Part shown: in pieces, positions 2,958 through 9,240 of the stretch | How positions within the stretch are numbered: position 1 is the stretch's first letter | How the letters are laid out: the number at the start of each line of letters is the position of its first letter | Origin: JAUXIQ01 sp030620925 [NCBI: Nitrospinota bacterium] | GTDB taxonomy: Bacteria > JAUXIQ01 | DNA: 9,240 nt | Reading direction: 5' to 3' | Assembly (NCBI GenBank): GCA_030620925.1 | Contig: JAUXIQ010000053.1 | Span: forward strand, 1 to 9,240 | The notes under the pieces: model-generated | The model's input: only the letters and a program-made list of their open reading frames with translations | Database searches by the model: none | Told to the model about the DNA's origin: nothing | Program-made: the position numbers and the translations under genes

Positions 2958-3974
2958 ATGACCAAACCGGCGCGAGGGACTGAAAAGCTACCCGACAAAC
3001 TGGTAGACAGCTTTGACCGACGAATCAACTACATGCGCATCTCCGTCACCGATCGCTGCAATCTGCGCTGCCGTTACTGCATGCCCCAGCAGGGACTGGA
3101 TTTGCTTTCCCCCGACCAGGTTCTACACTACGAGGAGCTCCTGCGCATCGCACGCCTGGCCGTGGCGGGAGGCATAACCAAGGTCCGCATTACCGGAGGC
3201 GAGCCCCTGGTGCGGAAGGGGCTGCTGGAGTTCGTTTCCAGTCTCTCACGGATAGAGGGTATTCATGACCTGGCTCTCACCACAAACGGTCTTCTCCTCG
3301 AGAAATATGCCCGGGGTCTCTATGAGGCCGGTCTGCGCCGGGTGAACGTAAGCCTGGATACACTCAAAGCTGATCGATACGCCCGGATAACGCGGTCCGA
3401 TTCGCTGGAAAAGGTTATGGCAGGCATTGGCGCCGCCAGGGATGAGGGCCTTAATCCGGTGAAGATAAATATGGTTGTCATACGCGGCCTAAACCATGAC
3501 GAGGTGGTGGATTTCGCGGCCCTCACCAGGGATGAGAAACTCCACGTTCGATTCATAGAGTTCATGCCACTGGGTGAAGATGAATTCTGGAGCCGGGAGA
3601 TGTATGTGCCCAGCGATGAGGTCAAGGCACTGGTGGAGAAGAGTCAAAAACTTGTGCCCGCCAAAAGCGGGGGCAGCGGTCCGGCGGTGATGTACCGCTT
3701 CCCCAAAGGCAAGGGGCAGATAGGCTTCATAAGCCCCATCAGCAACCATTTCTGCCGATCTTGTGACCGGCTGCGCCTCACCGCAGACGGCAAACTGCGC
3801 ACCTGTCTCTTCTCGGACACCGAAATTGACCTCATGACCCCCATCAGAAACGGTATCACTGACGAGGAACTATTTAACCTCCTCCATCACGGCACCAAAT
3901 CCAAGCCCCGGGGGCACAACATGCACGCCGACCCCGGCAATACCGACCGCTACATGTCTCAAATAGGCGGGTAA
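2958..3974 (+). CDS. moaA: GTP 3',8-cyclase MoaA (molybdenum cofactor biosynthesis)
   Basis: MoaA is a cytoplasmic radical SAM enzyme that converts GTP to 3',8-cyclo-7,8-dihydro-GTP, which MoaC turns into cyclic pyranopterin monophosphate, the first stage of molybdenum cofactor synthesis. The N-terminal radical SAM cluster is C34-x3-C38-x2-C41 within TDRCNLRCRYCMP. The GGEP motif is at 80-83, and the substrate-side second cluster uses Cys266, Cys269 and Cys283 (CRSC, then RTC). The protein ends in MSQIGG; the terminal Gly-Gly (337-338) is the conserved tail known to be needed for activity. At 338 residues it is full length. The ATG is preceded by GGAG at 2945-2948 with a 9-nt gap. No other Moco gene is nearby. 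The last 68 bp recur in decayed form at 4835-4902. Confidence 0.96.
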   Translation: MTKPARGTEKLPDKLVDSFDRRINYMRISVTDRCNLRCRYCMPQQGLDLLSPDQVLHYEELLRIARLAVAGGITKVRITGGEPLVRKGLLEFVSSLSRIEGIHDLALTTNGLLLEKYARGLYEAGLRRVNVSLDTLKADRYARITRSDSLEKVMAGIGAARDEGLNPVKINMVVIRGLNHDEVVDFAALTRDEKLHVRFIEFMPLGEDEFWSREMYVPSDEVKALVEKSQKLVPAKSGGSGPAVMYRFPKGKGQIGFISPISNHFCRSCDRLRLTADGKLRTCLFSDTEIDLMTPIRNGITDEELFNLLHHGTKSKPRGHNMHADPGNTDRYMSQIGG

Positions 3975-3977
3975 TCC

Positions 3978-4007
3978 AAAACCAGGCTCGCCAGACACAC
4001 CGGTTTT
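3978..4007 (+). terminator. possible weak Rho-independent terminator of moaA
   Basis: AAAACC, a bulged A, then GG can pair with CC plus GGTTTT across a 13-nt loop, 3 bp after the moaA stop; the stem itself ends in four T. The stem is short and bulged, so termination efficiency is uncertain. Confidence 0.38.
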
Positions 4008-4296
4008 CATCACGCGATCCCATCGAATTAATAGACAGCCCATGTCCGTCTTCCCCTGCTTCATCCTGAAGCGTAAAAATAACCAGTAATACAACTTTGT
4101 CATAACAATGCAAACGCCTTTAATTAGATATTGTTTTAGCTAAAGGAAACGATTAAGAAATGCGAAAATATATAAAAGGGCTCTTATAAATTATGAGAGC
4201 TTACCAGAGGATGAGAAGAATGCTGTGAGGGGTATTTTGCAAGGCTCTGGGTTAAAAGAGTCGGGTTTTTATGGAAAATTTTAATTGAATAGCGAG
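4008..4296. other. AT-rich non-coding gap with one good hairpin
   Basis: No gene is supported between moaA and the small gene at 4309. The base composition turns AT-rich here. The clear structure is a 9-bp hairpin at 4180-4200 (GCTCTTATA, loop AAT, TATGAGAGC, one T-G wobble) without a T-tract, so its role is unknown. The segment at 4151-4177 recurs, nearly identical apart from two substitutions and two single-base gaps, at 5135-5163. No convincing -35/-10 pair was found for the downstream gene. Confidence 0.5.
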
Positions 4297-4306
4297 GGAG
4301 GGGGAG
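4297..4306 (+). promoter_or_regulatory. ribosome binding site fixing the ATG at 4309
   Basis: The purine run GGAGGGGGAG contains GGAGG at 4297-4301, 7 nt before ATG 4309. An in-frame TTG at 4285 lies upstream of this run and has no such site, so the ATG is the better start. Confidence 0.65.
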
Positions 4307-4308
4307 CG

Positions 4309-4749
4309 ATGGAAATAGGTACCGGGAATGAAATAACGATAGAAAACGGGAACTATACTTGCAGGACCTATGATCTCACTTTTACGGAGAAAGGGATAGC
4401 CTGCGTCCTCCTGGATGATTGGAGGCGCGCTTATCACTTGAATTTACTCTGGTTAATTGCCGGTTTATGGCCGGCTGTTATAGCGGAAACGATAGTGAAG
4501 GCAATATCGAGAAAAAGGACGAGGAGGAACAGGGAAGCATACGCCGGTTTGTCCCTTGAAGAAAAATTAGGTAAAAGCGAGCTTTCCTTTGTGATAGGGC
4601 GAAACAATATTGAAAAAATTAAACACAGCGGAGGCAAGGTTATAGTATTTACGGACCAGAAAAAGTATAAATTCGGCTTTCCAAGGATTAAAGATTATAA
4701 AAACGAGGTGAAGGGATATTTAGATAGTTACAACGGGCAGGCAAAATAA
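4309..4749 (+). CDS. hypothetical single-pass membrane protein, possibly split PH-like domain
   Basis: I do not recognise a named gene. The 146-residue product has a beta-rich start (NYTCRTYDLTFTEKGIACVLL, about residues 15-35), one hydrophobic segment (about 44-66) followed by a very basic stretch SRKRTRRNR (67-75), and a C-terminal part with alternating beta pattern (SFVIGRNNIEKIKHSGGKVIVFT, then KYKFGFP) ending in a helix. The positive-inside rule places the C-terminal part in the cytoplasm. The pattern resembles small bacterial proteins with a pleckstrin-homology-like fold interrupted by a membrane hairpin; this is a fold guess, not a function. The gene is isolated and AT-richer than the genes upstream. 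It lies between the true 3' end of moaA and a decayed copy of that end, which suggests arrival by duplication or insertion. It could also be an ordinary lineage-specific gene. Confidence 0.7.
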   Translation: MEIGTGNEITIENGNYTCRTYDLTFTEKGIACVLLDDWRRAYHLNLLWLIAGLWPAVIAETIVKAISRKRTRRNREAYAGLSLEEKLGKSELSFVIGRNNIEKIKHSGGKVIVFTDQKKYKFGFPRIKDYKNEVKGYLDSYNGQAK

Positions 4750-4779
4750 AAAATACCGGAGAATGTAAGCTCAAATCCT

Positions 4780-4843
4780 CCTGGGCTTTAAATTGGATAA
4801 GGATTTTTAATCTTCCTCATGGCGTTGCCAATTAAAGCCCAGG
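4780..4843. repeat. imperfect inverted repeat overlapping the moaA remnant
   Basis: The left arm at 4780-4796 (CCTGGGCTTTAAATTGG) is the reverse complement of the right arm at 4828-4843 (CCAATTAAAGCCCAGG) apart from one extra base, around a 31-nt spacer. The right arm runs into the first bases of the moaA-tail copy. It starts 31 bp after the stop of the small membrane-protein gene and might end its transcript, but no T-tract follows. It could equally be the edge of an inserted or rearranged segment. Confidence 0.6.
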
Positions 4844-4902
4844 GGGCACAATGTGCACGCCAACCCCTGCAATACCGTCCGCTATATGTCCCGAATAGGC
4901 GG
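4835..4902 (+). pseudogene. decayed duplicate of the 3' end of moaA
   Basis: These 68 bases align without gaps to the end of moaA (3903-3970), with 59 identities by direct counting. In the moaA frame they read PRGHNVHANPCNTVRYMSRIGG, against PRGHNMHADPGNTDRYMSQIGG in the intact protein. The stop after Gly-Gly is lost (CGA follows) and five of nine changes alter residues. Weaker similarity may extend upstream to about 4815. There is no start codon or preceding body of the gene, so this is a fragment and not a second enzyme. It lies 932 bp downstream of the original. Confidence 0.85.
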
Positions 4903-5424
4903 CCGAACGGCCGGTTCGCCATTATTATCCAGCATTTTATCGGCTTCAGCTATAAGGTTGTTTATTGATACCACAAATTTACCATGGTCTTTCTGAAAAC
5001 GTGAGTGCAGCAACTATAGATAAAAACCTGTTTGATAGATATGTCTGACAACAAAATAATAAATACAATTATTCTTACTTTTTATAACCTGATGAGAGGG
5101 TTTTTTGTATAATAATTCATACTTTGAGGCACCTGCTTAAGAAATGAGAAAATAATATTAAAATATTTTAAAAACTTTTTGTTTTACACTAATTATCTTT
5201 TAGCCCTGAGCCGATAAGGGACTTAAATGCGCTGTAAACTTTTTTTTGTGATTCTCAATCCGTAATTTTCGTTCGGGTTGTTGAAATGGGAGGGGGATTC
5301 TCATAATACGGTCAGAGAGTGTGTTTTTCCGGTTTCCAGGGGACCATCCTCGAAGAGGTATTATGGTAACTACCCGTTGAGCTTCCTTAAGCATTTCTAC
5401 GGCGAGGAGCGGAATACGATCTTT
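4903..5424. other. AT-rich non-coding region
   Basis: No gene is supported here. A short hairpin GAACGGCCGGTTC lies at 4905-4917. A weak terminator-like element at 5086-5106 pairs AACCT with GGGTT (one wobble) and ends in six T. TATAAT occurs at 5108-5113 but lacks a matching -35. The segment 5135-5163 resembles 4151-4177. A 23-codon open frame at 5041-5112 has no ribosome binding site. The base composition is lower in GC than the flanking genes. Confidence 0.45.
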
Positions 5425-5446
5425 ATTACAACCACATTACAACCAC
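5425..5446. repeat. perfect tandem 11-bp direct repeat
   Basis: ATTACAACCAC occurs twice with no spacer (5425-5435 and 5436-5446), ending 62 bp before the start of the diguanylate cyclase gene. Two tandem sites one helical turn apart are a common arrangement for regulator binding, but the regulator is unknown and a simple slippage duplication is equally possible. Confidence 0.7.
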
Positions 5447-5508
5447 AAGGTTAGGAACTGAAATTTACCGACTGAAACAGATTAAGATAATTTAGGAGCC
5501 TGGCTGAT

Positions 5509-6612: not shown

Positions 6613-6731
6613 ACATCACAAACTACTGATTTATCTTCGCTTTCCTGTTATGATAATGGACGTGAGCTCCAAAATCTATTTGGAGACCATCCTTGCCCGA
6701 AAACGATGAAAAGCCAAAATTTACTGGATAT

Positions 6732-6736
6732 AGGGG
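6732..6736 (+). promoter_or_regulatory. ribosome binding site supporting the GTG start at 6744
   Basis: AGGGG lies 7 nt before GTG 6744. The same GGGGAA context precedes the ATG of the paralog at 8548, where the following residues also match. This argues against the in-frame TTG at 6693. Confidence 0.65.
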
Positions 6737-6743
6737 AAATGCC

Positions 6744-8114
6744 GTGAGGCAAGAGCAGCTTTCACGTTTTCTACAAATTCAGGGTATACTTGCGGTTCTT
6801 CTGAGCATGTGCATTTTTATTACCGCTGCCGCCGCAGACGAAAGCACCCAAAAGGCCAAAGAATTGTTCTGGCGCGGCGTAAAATCGTTAGAAGCAAAAC
6901 AGTATGAGGAAGCCATTAAATATTTCAAATCCGTTCTTGAAGTTAAACCCGACTATGCTGATGCGTATCTGAATTTGAGCGCTGCTTACGGTGCGCTGGG
7001 TCGTGATGAAGAGGCTGCTAAAGCTACAAAAGCCTTCAGAAACGCGGTCAGCAGCGACCCTATGATTAAACATTACAACCGGGGGCTGACTAACGAAAGC
7101 CTGAAACGTTATGGAGATGCGGTCGAAGCATACCAAACGGTTATCCAGCTTAAGCCCGGTCACACAGAAGCACACTTTAGATTAGGGGTTAATTACAGTA
7201 AATTGGGGCGCTATGAAGAAGCGGTGAGGGCTTTCACCCAGGCCATATGGCTGAAGCCCGACTACGCCGAAGCGCATAACAACCTGGGCCTGTCTTATGG
7301 CCGGCTGAGTCGCTTTAAACAGGAGATCAAAGCTTATAAGGAAGCCATACGGCTGAATCCAGACTTCACCGAAGCGTATTATAACCTCGGCAGGGCTTAT
7401 AATTCACAGGGTCGCCATGACCAGGCGGTGGAGGCATATGCTCAGGCTATACTCATAAATCCTGATGATGCAGAGCCGCACTTCGGCCTGGGCGCTACTT
7501 ACAGAAAGTTGGAGCGCTATGAAGAAGCGATCGAGGCAATTAAACAGGCCATCCGTCTAAAACCCGACTATGAAGCTCCGCATAATGAGCTGGGGCTGGT
7601 TTACGCCGATTCGGGGCGCTATGCCGAGGCAGCGGAGGCGTATCAGCTGGCCATACGCGTAAACCCCGACTACGCCGAAGCATACAATAACCTGGGCGTG
7701 GTTTATAGCTTGTCAGGGCGCTATGAAGAAGCAGCGGAGGCGCTTAAACAGGTCATCCGCATCGACCCTGATAATACCGATACACACGTCGTGCTGGCCC
7801 GTACGCTTATTAAATCTGCTCGCTATACCCAGGCGGTAAAAGAGTTAAAATACTTGATCCGATTAAATCCTGAAAATGCCGCGGCTCGCTCTCTCTTAGG
7901 ATATGCTTACATCAATCTCAAACGCTATGAAGAAGCAGTAGAGGAATTTAAACTCGTTTTACAAATTAACCCTGGTAATGCCGAGACGCATTTAAATTTG
8001 GGTTATGCTTATGAGCTCCTGGGAGACCGGGGGGCGGCCCTGGATGAGTACAAAATTTTAAAAAAGCTCGACCCTCGGAAAGCCGATCAGCTTTTCGACC
8101 TTATCTATAAATAG
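6744..8114 (+). CDS. secreted or periplasmic tetratricopeptide repeat protein (about 12 TPRs)
   Basis: The GTG start gives 456 residues. An N-terminal signal sequence (basic start MRQEQLSRF, hydrophobic core about 14-30, AAAA-DE cleavage region near 31) predicts export. From about residue 38 to near the C-terminus run about twelve 34-residue TPR units with the consensus pattern YAEAHNNLGxxYxxxGRYEEAxEAYKQAIRLxPD. The second unit is irregular, with a few extra residues. The protein ends with GDRGAALDEYKILKKLDPRK plus a short capping helix. TPR arrays form protein-binding superhelices; no enzyme domain is present, so a scaffold or interaction role outside the cytoplasm is inferred. A longer frame starts at TTG 6693, but the ribosome binding site and alignment to the downstream paralog favour GTG. 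The paralog has fewer repeats, suggesting repeat expansion or loss. Confidence 0.9.
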   Translation: MRQEQLSRFLQIQGILAVLLSMCIFITAAAADESTQKAKELFWRGVKSLEAKQYEEAIKYFKSVLEVKPDYADAYLNLSAAYGALGRDEEAAKATKAFRNAVSSDPMIKHYNRGLTNESLKRYGDAVEAYQTVIQLKPGHTEAHFRLGVNYSKLGRYEEAVRAFTQAIWLKPDYAEAHNNLGLSYGRLSRFKQEIKAYKEAIRLNPDFTEAYYNLGRAYNSQGRHDQAVEAYAQAILINPDDAEPHFGLGATYRKLERYEEAIEAIKQAIRLKPDYEAPHNELGLVYADSGRYAEAAEAYQLAIRVNPDYAEAYNNLGVVYSLSGRYEEAAEALKQVIRIDPDNTDTHVVLARTLIKSARYTQAVKELKYLIRLNPENAAARSLLGYAYINLKRYEEAVEEFKLVLQINPGNAETHLNLGYAYELLGDRGAALDEYKILKKLDPRKADQLFDLIYK

Positions 8115-8535: not shown

Positions 8536-8545
8536 GGGGGGAAGG
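8536..8545 (+). promoter_or_regulatory. ribosome binding site of the second TPR gene
   Basis: The purine run GGGGGGAAGG ends 2 nt before ATG 8548. The core spacing is tight, but the segment is conserved with the region before the upstream paralog's GTG. Confidence 0.45.
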
Positions 8546-8547
8546 TC

Positions 8548-9240
8548 ATGAAGCAAGAGCGACGTTCACGTTTTCTAAAAATTCAGGGTATTGCAGCGAC
8601 TCTAGTTATCACCTGTATCTTTATTGCCGCTGCCATAGCGGATGATAGAACCAAAGAGACCGATGAGCTATTCTCGCAAGGCGTTGGAGCAATTAAGGCA
8701 CAGAACTATGAAGAGGCTGTCAAATACTTTGAGGCCTCATTGGAAATAAAGCCCGACGACGCCGGAGTGTATCACTCCCTGGGGTTTGTTTATAGCCGGC
8801 TCGACCGATACGCTGAGGCGGTGGAAGCCTATAAACAGGCCATCCGGATAAACCCTGATGAAGCATCAGCGCACTACAACCTGGGGTTGGCTTATAGCTA
8901 TCTGAAACGTTATACCGATGCCGAAGAGGCGTATAGGCAGGCAATCCGGATAAACCCTGACGACGTATCAGCGTATTACAACCTGGGCTGGGATTATGAG
9001 GAACTTGGCCGCTACGTCGAGGCTGCGGAAGCCTATAAACAGACCATCCGGGTTAAACCTGACCACTTTAAAGCGCATCATAACCTGGGCGGAGCCTATG
9101 GCGAGCTGGGCCGCTACGCTGAGGCAATAAAGGCGTATAAACAGGCCCTAAAGATAAACCCTGGTTCCCCCGAAGCGCATTACAACCTGGGTGTTGCCTA
9201 TCTATTTAATGGAAACCGCGAAGCAGCCCTTGAAGAATAC
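8548..9240 (+). CDS. secreted tetratricopeptide repeat protein, paralog of the upstream TPR gene (3' end outside window)
   Basis: The frame is open from ATG 8548 to the window edge, 231 codons. The signal sequence MKQERRSRFLKIQGIAATL, hydrophobic core to about residue 31, then DDRTKETDELF, aligns closely with the upstream TPR protein (RSRFLKIQGI against LSRFLQIQGI; YEEAVKYFEASLEIKPDD against YEEAIKYFKSVLEVKPDY). Five full TPR units and most of a sixth are visible. The last visible segment, NGNREAALEEY, matches the final-repeat cap GDRGAALDEY of the paralog, so the protein probably ends about 20 residues beyond the window with six repeats. Export and protein-binding are inferred from the signal sequence and the fold; no specific function can be assigned. 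The two genes likely arose by tandem duplication that included the ribosome binding site. Confidence 0.9.
   Translation, partial: MKQERRSRFLKIQGIAATLVITCIFIAAAIADDRTKETDELFSQGVGAIKAQNYEEAVKYFEASLEIKPDDAGVYHSLGFVYSRLDRYAEAVEAYKQAIRINPDEASAHYNLGLAYSYLKRYTDAEEAYRQAIRINPDDVSAYYNLGWDYEELGRYVEAAEAYKQTIRVKPDHFKAHHNLGGAYGELGRYAEAIKAYKQALKINPGSPEAHYNLGVAYLFNGNREAALEEY

What the first reader, a model, noticed from the sequence alone, without database searches (positions are those of the whole stretch)
3903..4902. The 3' end of moaA is duplicated 932 bp downstream, bracketing an orphan gene
The last 68 bp of moaA before the stop codon (3903-3970) recur at 4835-4902 with 59/68 identities, no gaps and the same reading frame. 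Between them lie an AT-rich stretch and one small membrane-protein gene. Mobile elements that integrate into gene 3' ends leave exactly such a regenerated tail and a displaced tail, and the enclosed DNA differs in composition. The divergence shows the event is old. A tandem duplication followed by decay is the alternative.
Basis: partly seen in the sequence, partly recalled or inferred. Interest (0 to 1): 0.62.

Follow-up and report, generated by a model that had tools for sequence, protein, structure and literature searches.

The report
Displaced remnant of a gene's tail
A broken second copy of the tail of the molybdenum-cofactor gene moaA lies about 900 bases downstream, probably the scar of an old DNA insertion; it is real but small and of a familiar kind.

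Summary
In detail: 3903-3970 recurs at 4835-4902 with 59 of 68 identities, no gaps, same frame. Copy 2 lacks the stop codon and is a scar. It may extend upstream to about 4800, broken by indels and a frameshift. In-place decay of a tandem moaA duplicate is not tenable: apart from that possible 35-bp extension, the 860 bp between the copies show no moaA homology, and they carry an unrelated ORF. Integration of foreign DNA at the moaA 3' end, with tail regeneration, is my best reading (0.45). It is unproven: no recombinase found beside it, no identical core, no empty site to compare. The AT-rich stretch also runs about 600 bp past copy 2. No other genome of the phylum is held, so the decisive comparison could not be made. 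A non-mobile template-switch duplication is the main rival (0.35). Modest interest.

The parts
2958..3974 (+). moaA, GTP 3',8-cyclase, intact, 338 aa, ending ...KPRGHNMHADPGNTDRYMSQIGG and TAA
   Evidence: NCBIfam TIGR02666 390.6 bits over a cut-off of 284.05; Pfam Radical_SAM and Mob_synth_C; the only match in the genome at E <= 1e-80
3903..3970 (+). copy 1 of the tail, the functional 3' end of moaA
   Evidence: 59/68 to copy 2
3975..4834 (.). enclosed DNA, about 41% GC, no second copy found in the genome; no moaA homology apart from the possible extension of copy 2 at its right end
4309..4749 (+). orphan ORF of 146 aa (from ATG 4309; the listed ORF starts at TTG 4285) with a purine-rich ribosome-binding-like stretch before the ATG and one hydrophobic stretch (both read by eye); GC3 0.47 against 0.69 in moaA
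   Evidence: no family in Pfam, PHROGs or NCBIfam; no match in phages, plasmids or viral contigs; 2 of 385 other genomes at E about 0.007 per genome, chance level
4777..4796 (-). inverted 20-nt third piece of the moaA tail; left arm of a hairpin with the start of copy 2
   Evidence: 18/19 plus one gap to 4828-4846; 15/20 without gap to 3895-3914; inverted repeat I4; RNA fold
4800..4834 (+). possible frameshifted upstream extension of copy 2 (aligns with 3865-3902 with gaps; IFNLPHG against LFNLLHHG)
   Evidence: moderate, depends on scoring
4835..4902 (+). copy 2, displaced moaA tail without stop codon (KPRGHNVHANPCNTVRYMSRIGG)
   Evidence: phmmer 26.4 bits to this MoaA
4903..5508 (.). AT-rich (36.5% GC) stretch after copy 2 up to the GGDEF gene; no other copy found in the genome

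Best explanation
Copy 2 is a dead, displaced fragment of this organism's own moaA 3' end. Most likely, foreign DNA once integrated near the moaA 3' end. The incoming DNA carried its own version of the tail, which completed moaA (copy 1), and pushed the old tail downstream (copy 2). The element then lost its integration genes and shrank to about 860 bp with one orphan ORF, while copy 2 lost its stop codon and, at its left edge, its frame. A fold-back (template-switch) event there probably made the inverted 20-nt piece at 4777-4796. Shown: the repeat, the missing stop, the unrelated DNA between, the inverted piece. Inferred: the integration, its direction, the loss of a recombinase, the fold-back origin.
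For: Direct repeat of 59/68 ending at the last codon. No significant homology beyond it downstream (50 of 300 shuffles; 341 of 1324 random anchors). The copy shares this lineage's own C-terminal peptide, which none of the 12 aligned MoaA relatives has. moaA is single at E <= 1e-80. The enclosed DNA shows no moaA homology apart from the possible 35-bp extension (phmmer, six frames; self-blastn), so in-place decay of a tandem duplicate is not tenable. The enclosed ORF is an orphan with GC3 0.47 against 0.69 in moaA. The genome does encode tyrosine recombinases elsewhere: 4 matches over the cut-off, two of them partial, not sorted into integrases and Xer types. Islander (PMC4383910, abstract and passages) uses the regenerated target plus displaced fragment as the mark of tRNA/tmRNA-gene islands; [quoted passage not shown]
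Against: No recombinase found in the window. 860 bp is below the 2-kb lower limit that Islander uses, and Islander also requires an integrase. The longest identical run in the block is 10 bp, so there is no recognisable crossover core. The AT-rich stretch continues about 600 bp beyond copy 2. Neither tail nor insert was found elsewhere in the genome, and a degenerate 26-base tail pattern (exact matches only) had none in viral contigs. None of 12 distant moaA loci has a tail copy at E below 1e-3 in the 1.4-1.6 kb downstream that was examined. No empty site was available.
Confidence: 0.45

Rival explanations
1. Non-mobile duplication: a replication error (template switch or break repair) copied about 70-105 bp of the moaA tail into the intergenic DNA 0.9 kb downstream, and the same kind of error made the inverted piece at 4777-4796. 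The ORF between is simply the ancestral neighbour of moaA.
For: The inverted third piece of the tail beside copy 2 (18/19 plus a gap) points to fold-back synthesis at this spot; inverted repeats of this quality are rare in the genome (6 in 261 kb of sampled contigs, coarse count). AT-rich non-coding DNA lies on both sides of copy 2. No recombinase found nearby.
Against: Does not predict that the block should stop at the last codon of moaA, nor that the neighbour should be an orphan gene of lower GC.
Confidence: 0.35
2. A second full-length moaA stood here, was mostly deleted, and other DNA moved in, leaving its tail.
For: Copy 2 is in frame for 23 codons and its upstream part may be a frameshifted continuation.
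Against: No further moaA homology in the enclosed DNA; needs a duplication, a large deletion and an unrelated insertion. None of 12 distant loci shows a tail copy downstream.
Confidence: 0.12
3. The hairpin and copy 2 are a retained RNA or regulatory element, for example a 3' hairpin of the orphan gene.
For: 15-nt arms, 14 of 15 complementary, beginning 27 bases after the ORF's stop codon.
Against: No run of T follows the stem and it is not among the terminator-like sites listed (2 listed, 1.9 expected); fold z-score only -1.76, 12 of 200 shuffles as good; no Rfam match; no relatives to show covariation.
Confidence: 0.06

Closest known systems
Genomic islands integrated into gene 3' ends with tail regeneration (tRNA/tmRNA islands of Islander, PMC4383910; protein-gene targets such as icd, recalled)
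   Same: Intact target gene, displaced 3' fragment in direct orientation, unrelated DNA between
   Different: No integrase found, under 1 kb, no identical core, no empty site seen; no paper on moaA as a target was noticed in the listings of two searches
Quasipalindrome / template-switch mutations (abstract starts of PMC7202029 and PMC8794818 in the listing)
   Same: Imperfect inverted repeat whose arms agree more with each other than with the source gene
   Different: Here the arm lies beside a displaced gene fragment; the event itself was not observed

Membership tests
Genomic island integrated at a gene 3' end | Direct repeat of the target gene's 3' end, gene intact on one side, fragment on the other | tested here: met
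   59/68, same orientation, moaA intact, copy 2 without stop
Genomic island integrated at a gene 3' end | Recombinase gene on the element | tested here: not met
   The enclosed 146-aa ORF has no family; the four PF00589 matches of the genome lie on other contigs. Serine recombinases were not sought in six frames
Genomic island integrated at a gene 3' end | Identical core shared by the two ends | tested here: not met
   Longest identical run 10 bp in the 68-bp block; a core could be lost by age
Genomic island integrated at a gene 3' end | Empty site in relatives | not testable with these tools
   No other genome of the phylum held; genome contigs gave only two moaA relatives, 47-48% identical
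Genomic island integrated at a gene 3' end | Composition of the enclosed DNA differs from both flanks | tested here: inconclusive
   About 41% GC enclosed, 57% in moaA, but 36.5% in the 600 bp outside copy 2
Decayed tandem duplicate of moaA | moaA homology throughout the second unit | tested here: not met
   phmmer with this MoaA finds only residues 314-338, at copy 2; a family profile finds nothing at E below 0.01 (best 0.013, in copy 2's frame); self-blastn finds only the 68 bp

The most novel reading that the evidence does not exclude
moaA's 3' end is an integration target for a small mobile element of this isolated phylum, one that carries a replacement tail encoding a slightly different MoaA C-terminus. 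The present MoaA tail would then be of foreign origin.
Probability: 0.2. Interest if true: 0.4.

Novelty: new member of a known kind. Interest (0 to 1): 0.25.

Why it matters
If integration is right, moaA joins the protein genes whose 3' ends serve as insertion sites, and the C-terminal tail of a conserved enzyme, which ends in Gly-Gly here and in all 12 aligned relatives, would have been swapped by a mobile element. If not, the locus is a compact record of a fold-back duplication of a gene tail. Either way the scale is one locus in one genome.

Tried and rejected
Tandem duplication decaying in place: rejected, since only the tail matches MoaA. Assembly artefact: thought unlikely from reading the alignment, because the copies differ at 9 of 68 positions with no shared run over 10 bp; no reads were available. 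Structure prediction of the orphan ORF gave mean pLDDT 33.4 from a single sequence and was not used. RNA families and tRNAs: none in the window. Promoter- and terminator-like sites: not used; terminator-like sites are at the chance number. A 17-base match of the left arm on contig C241 (E 0.16 and 0.54) is chance level. Two weak matches of the orphan ORF in 385 other genomes (E about 0.007) are chance level. Tail copies in 12 distant moaA loci: 0 of 12 at E below 1e-3, best 0.005. Extension of the repeat past the stop is not significant (585 of 1000 shuffles). Papers: searches gave listings only; one irrelevant paper; none; PMC10111431 and PMC4383910 were read as passages.

Full report
The window is G000:C423:1-9240 of an assembly of 2.5 Mb in 445 contigs, 89% complete. 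Its genes in order are an acyl-CoA dehydrogenase C-terminus, an ornithine/aspartate carbamoyltransferase, a HemN/HemW-type radical SAM protein, moaA, the orphan ORF, a GGDEF protein and a TPR protein. A search limited to its phylum returned this genome alone. The genome-contig scan with MoaA gave only two relatives, 47-48% identical. Among 41 genomes searched, 10 including this one had a MoaA at E <= 1e-80, the best other at 52%.

The repeat is real. 3903-3970 and 4835-4902 agree at 59 of 68 positions without gaps, E 1.3e-17 in a self-comparison. No other part of the window that was searched exceeds 33 of 68. In 40 of 445 contigs taken as background (261,188 bp) there is no direct repeat of at least 60 bp and 85% identity; the longest was 175 bp at 71%. 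Of the nine differences four are synonymous and five change the residue; all 23 codons stay open. The stop codon of copy 1 is replaced by CGA in copy 2. By chance 21% of changes in these codons would be synonymous (42 of 198), so four of nine does not exclude neutral decay.

The homology may reach further upstream. An alignment with gaps continues to 3865/4800. Anchored extension was matched by 0 of 300 shuffles and by 7 of 1291 random anchors, but by 28 of 1303 and 434 of 1320 under stricter gap and mismatch costs, and the unanchored flank alignment by 58 of 1000 shuffles. This is moderate evidence. Read in another frame, this stretch gives IFNLPHG where MoaA has LFNLLHHG. Downstream of the stop there is no significant similarity (50 of 300; 341 of 1324).

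The left arm, taken as 4777-4796 and reverse-complemented, matches copy 2 at 18 of 19 positions plus one gap (0 of 2000 shuffles as good) and copy 1 at 15 of 20 without gap (1 of 2000). It shares the three substitutions by which copy 2 differs from copy 1 there, though not its one-base gap, so it was made from, or kept in step with, copy 2. Six inverted repeats of this quality were counted, by coarse binning, in the 261 kb sample and one in the window. Template switching is reported to make and homogenise such arms (abstract starts in the listing). That it did so here is inference. As an RNA the region folds only slightly better than shuffles (z -1.76) and no T run follows the stem, so a terminator is not favoured.

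What lies between the copies is not moaA. phmmer with this MoaA finds only residues 314-338, at copy 2, in six frames of 3975-5508 (E 5.4e-8; next best above 1). A profile from an alignment of 15 rows (12 relatives and this MoaA three times) finds nothing at E below 0.01, its best being 0.013 in the frame of copy 2, so the profile is weak for so short a tail. Self-blastn finds no further moaA piece. The possible extension at 4800-4834 is the one exception and was not seen by these searches. A 146-aa ORF with GC3 0.47 (moaA 0.69) lies between the copies. It has no family in Pfam, PHROGs or NCBIfam and no credible relative in phages, plasmids, viral contigs or 385 other genomes. The enclosed DNA was found once in the genome. 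A tandem duplicate that decayed in place is therefore not tenable, because the tail is 87% identical while the rest would have to be unrecognisable.

Two routes remain. Integration at the moaA 3' end with regeneration of the tail predicts the layout, the end of homology at the last codon and the foreign-looking insert. It lacks a recombinase (none among seven main ORFs by Pfam; PF00589 matches only on other contigs; other recombinase types not sought in six frames), an identical core and an empty site, and the AT-rich stretch runs beyond copy 2 (36.5% GC at 4903-5508). A local template-switch duplication needs no mobile element and fits the inverted third piece, but leaves the precise end and the orphan insert as coincidences. 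I put integration at 0.45 and local duplication at 0.35. The tests that would separate them need close relatives, which are not held. In the listings of two literature searches I noticed no paper on moaA as an integration target.

Noticed in passing
6733-6880 and 8537-8684: The start of the TPR gene (6693-8114) recurs at 72% over 148 bp before a second stretch of TPR-like repeats that goes on towards the window's end: probably a tandem pair of TPR genes.
   Followed up: no
4186-4284: An open stretch reading INYESLPEDEKNAVRGILQGSGLKESGFYGKF lies in the frame of the orphan ORF just before it, with no clear start codon; possibly a broken small gene. No Pfam match.
   Followed up: partly
L039 5876-6050 and 7227-7401: Another direct repeat in the same genome, 175 bp at 71%.
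   Followed up: no
L051 8-66 and 6636-6694: An inverted repeat of 59 bp at 93% near both ends of a contig of the same genome.
   Followed up: no
whole genome G000: No other genome of its phylum is held, so this lineage is isolated in the collection.
   Followed up: no
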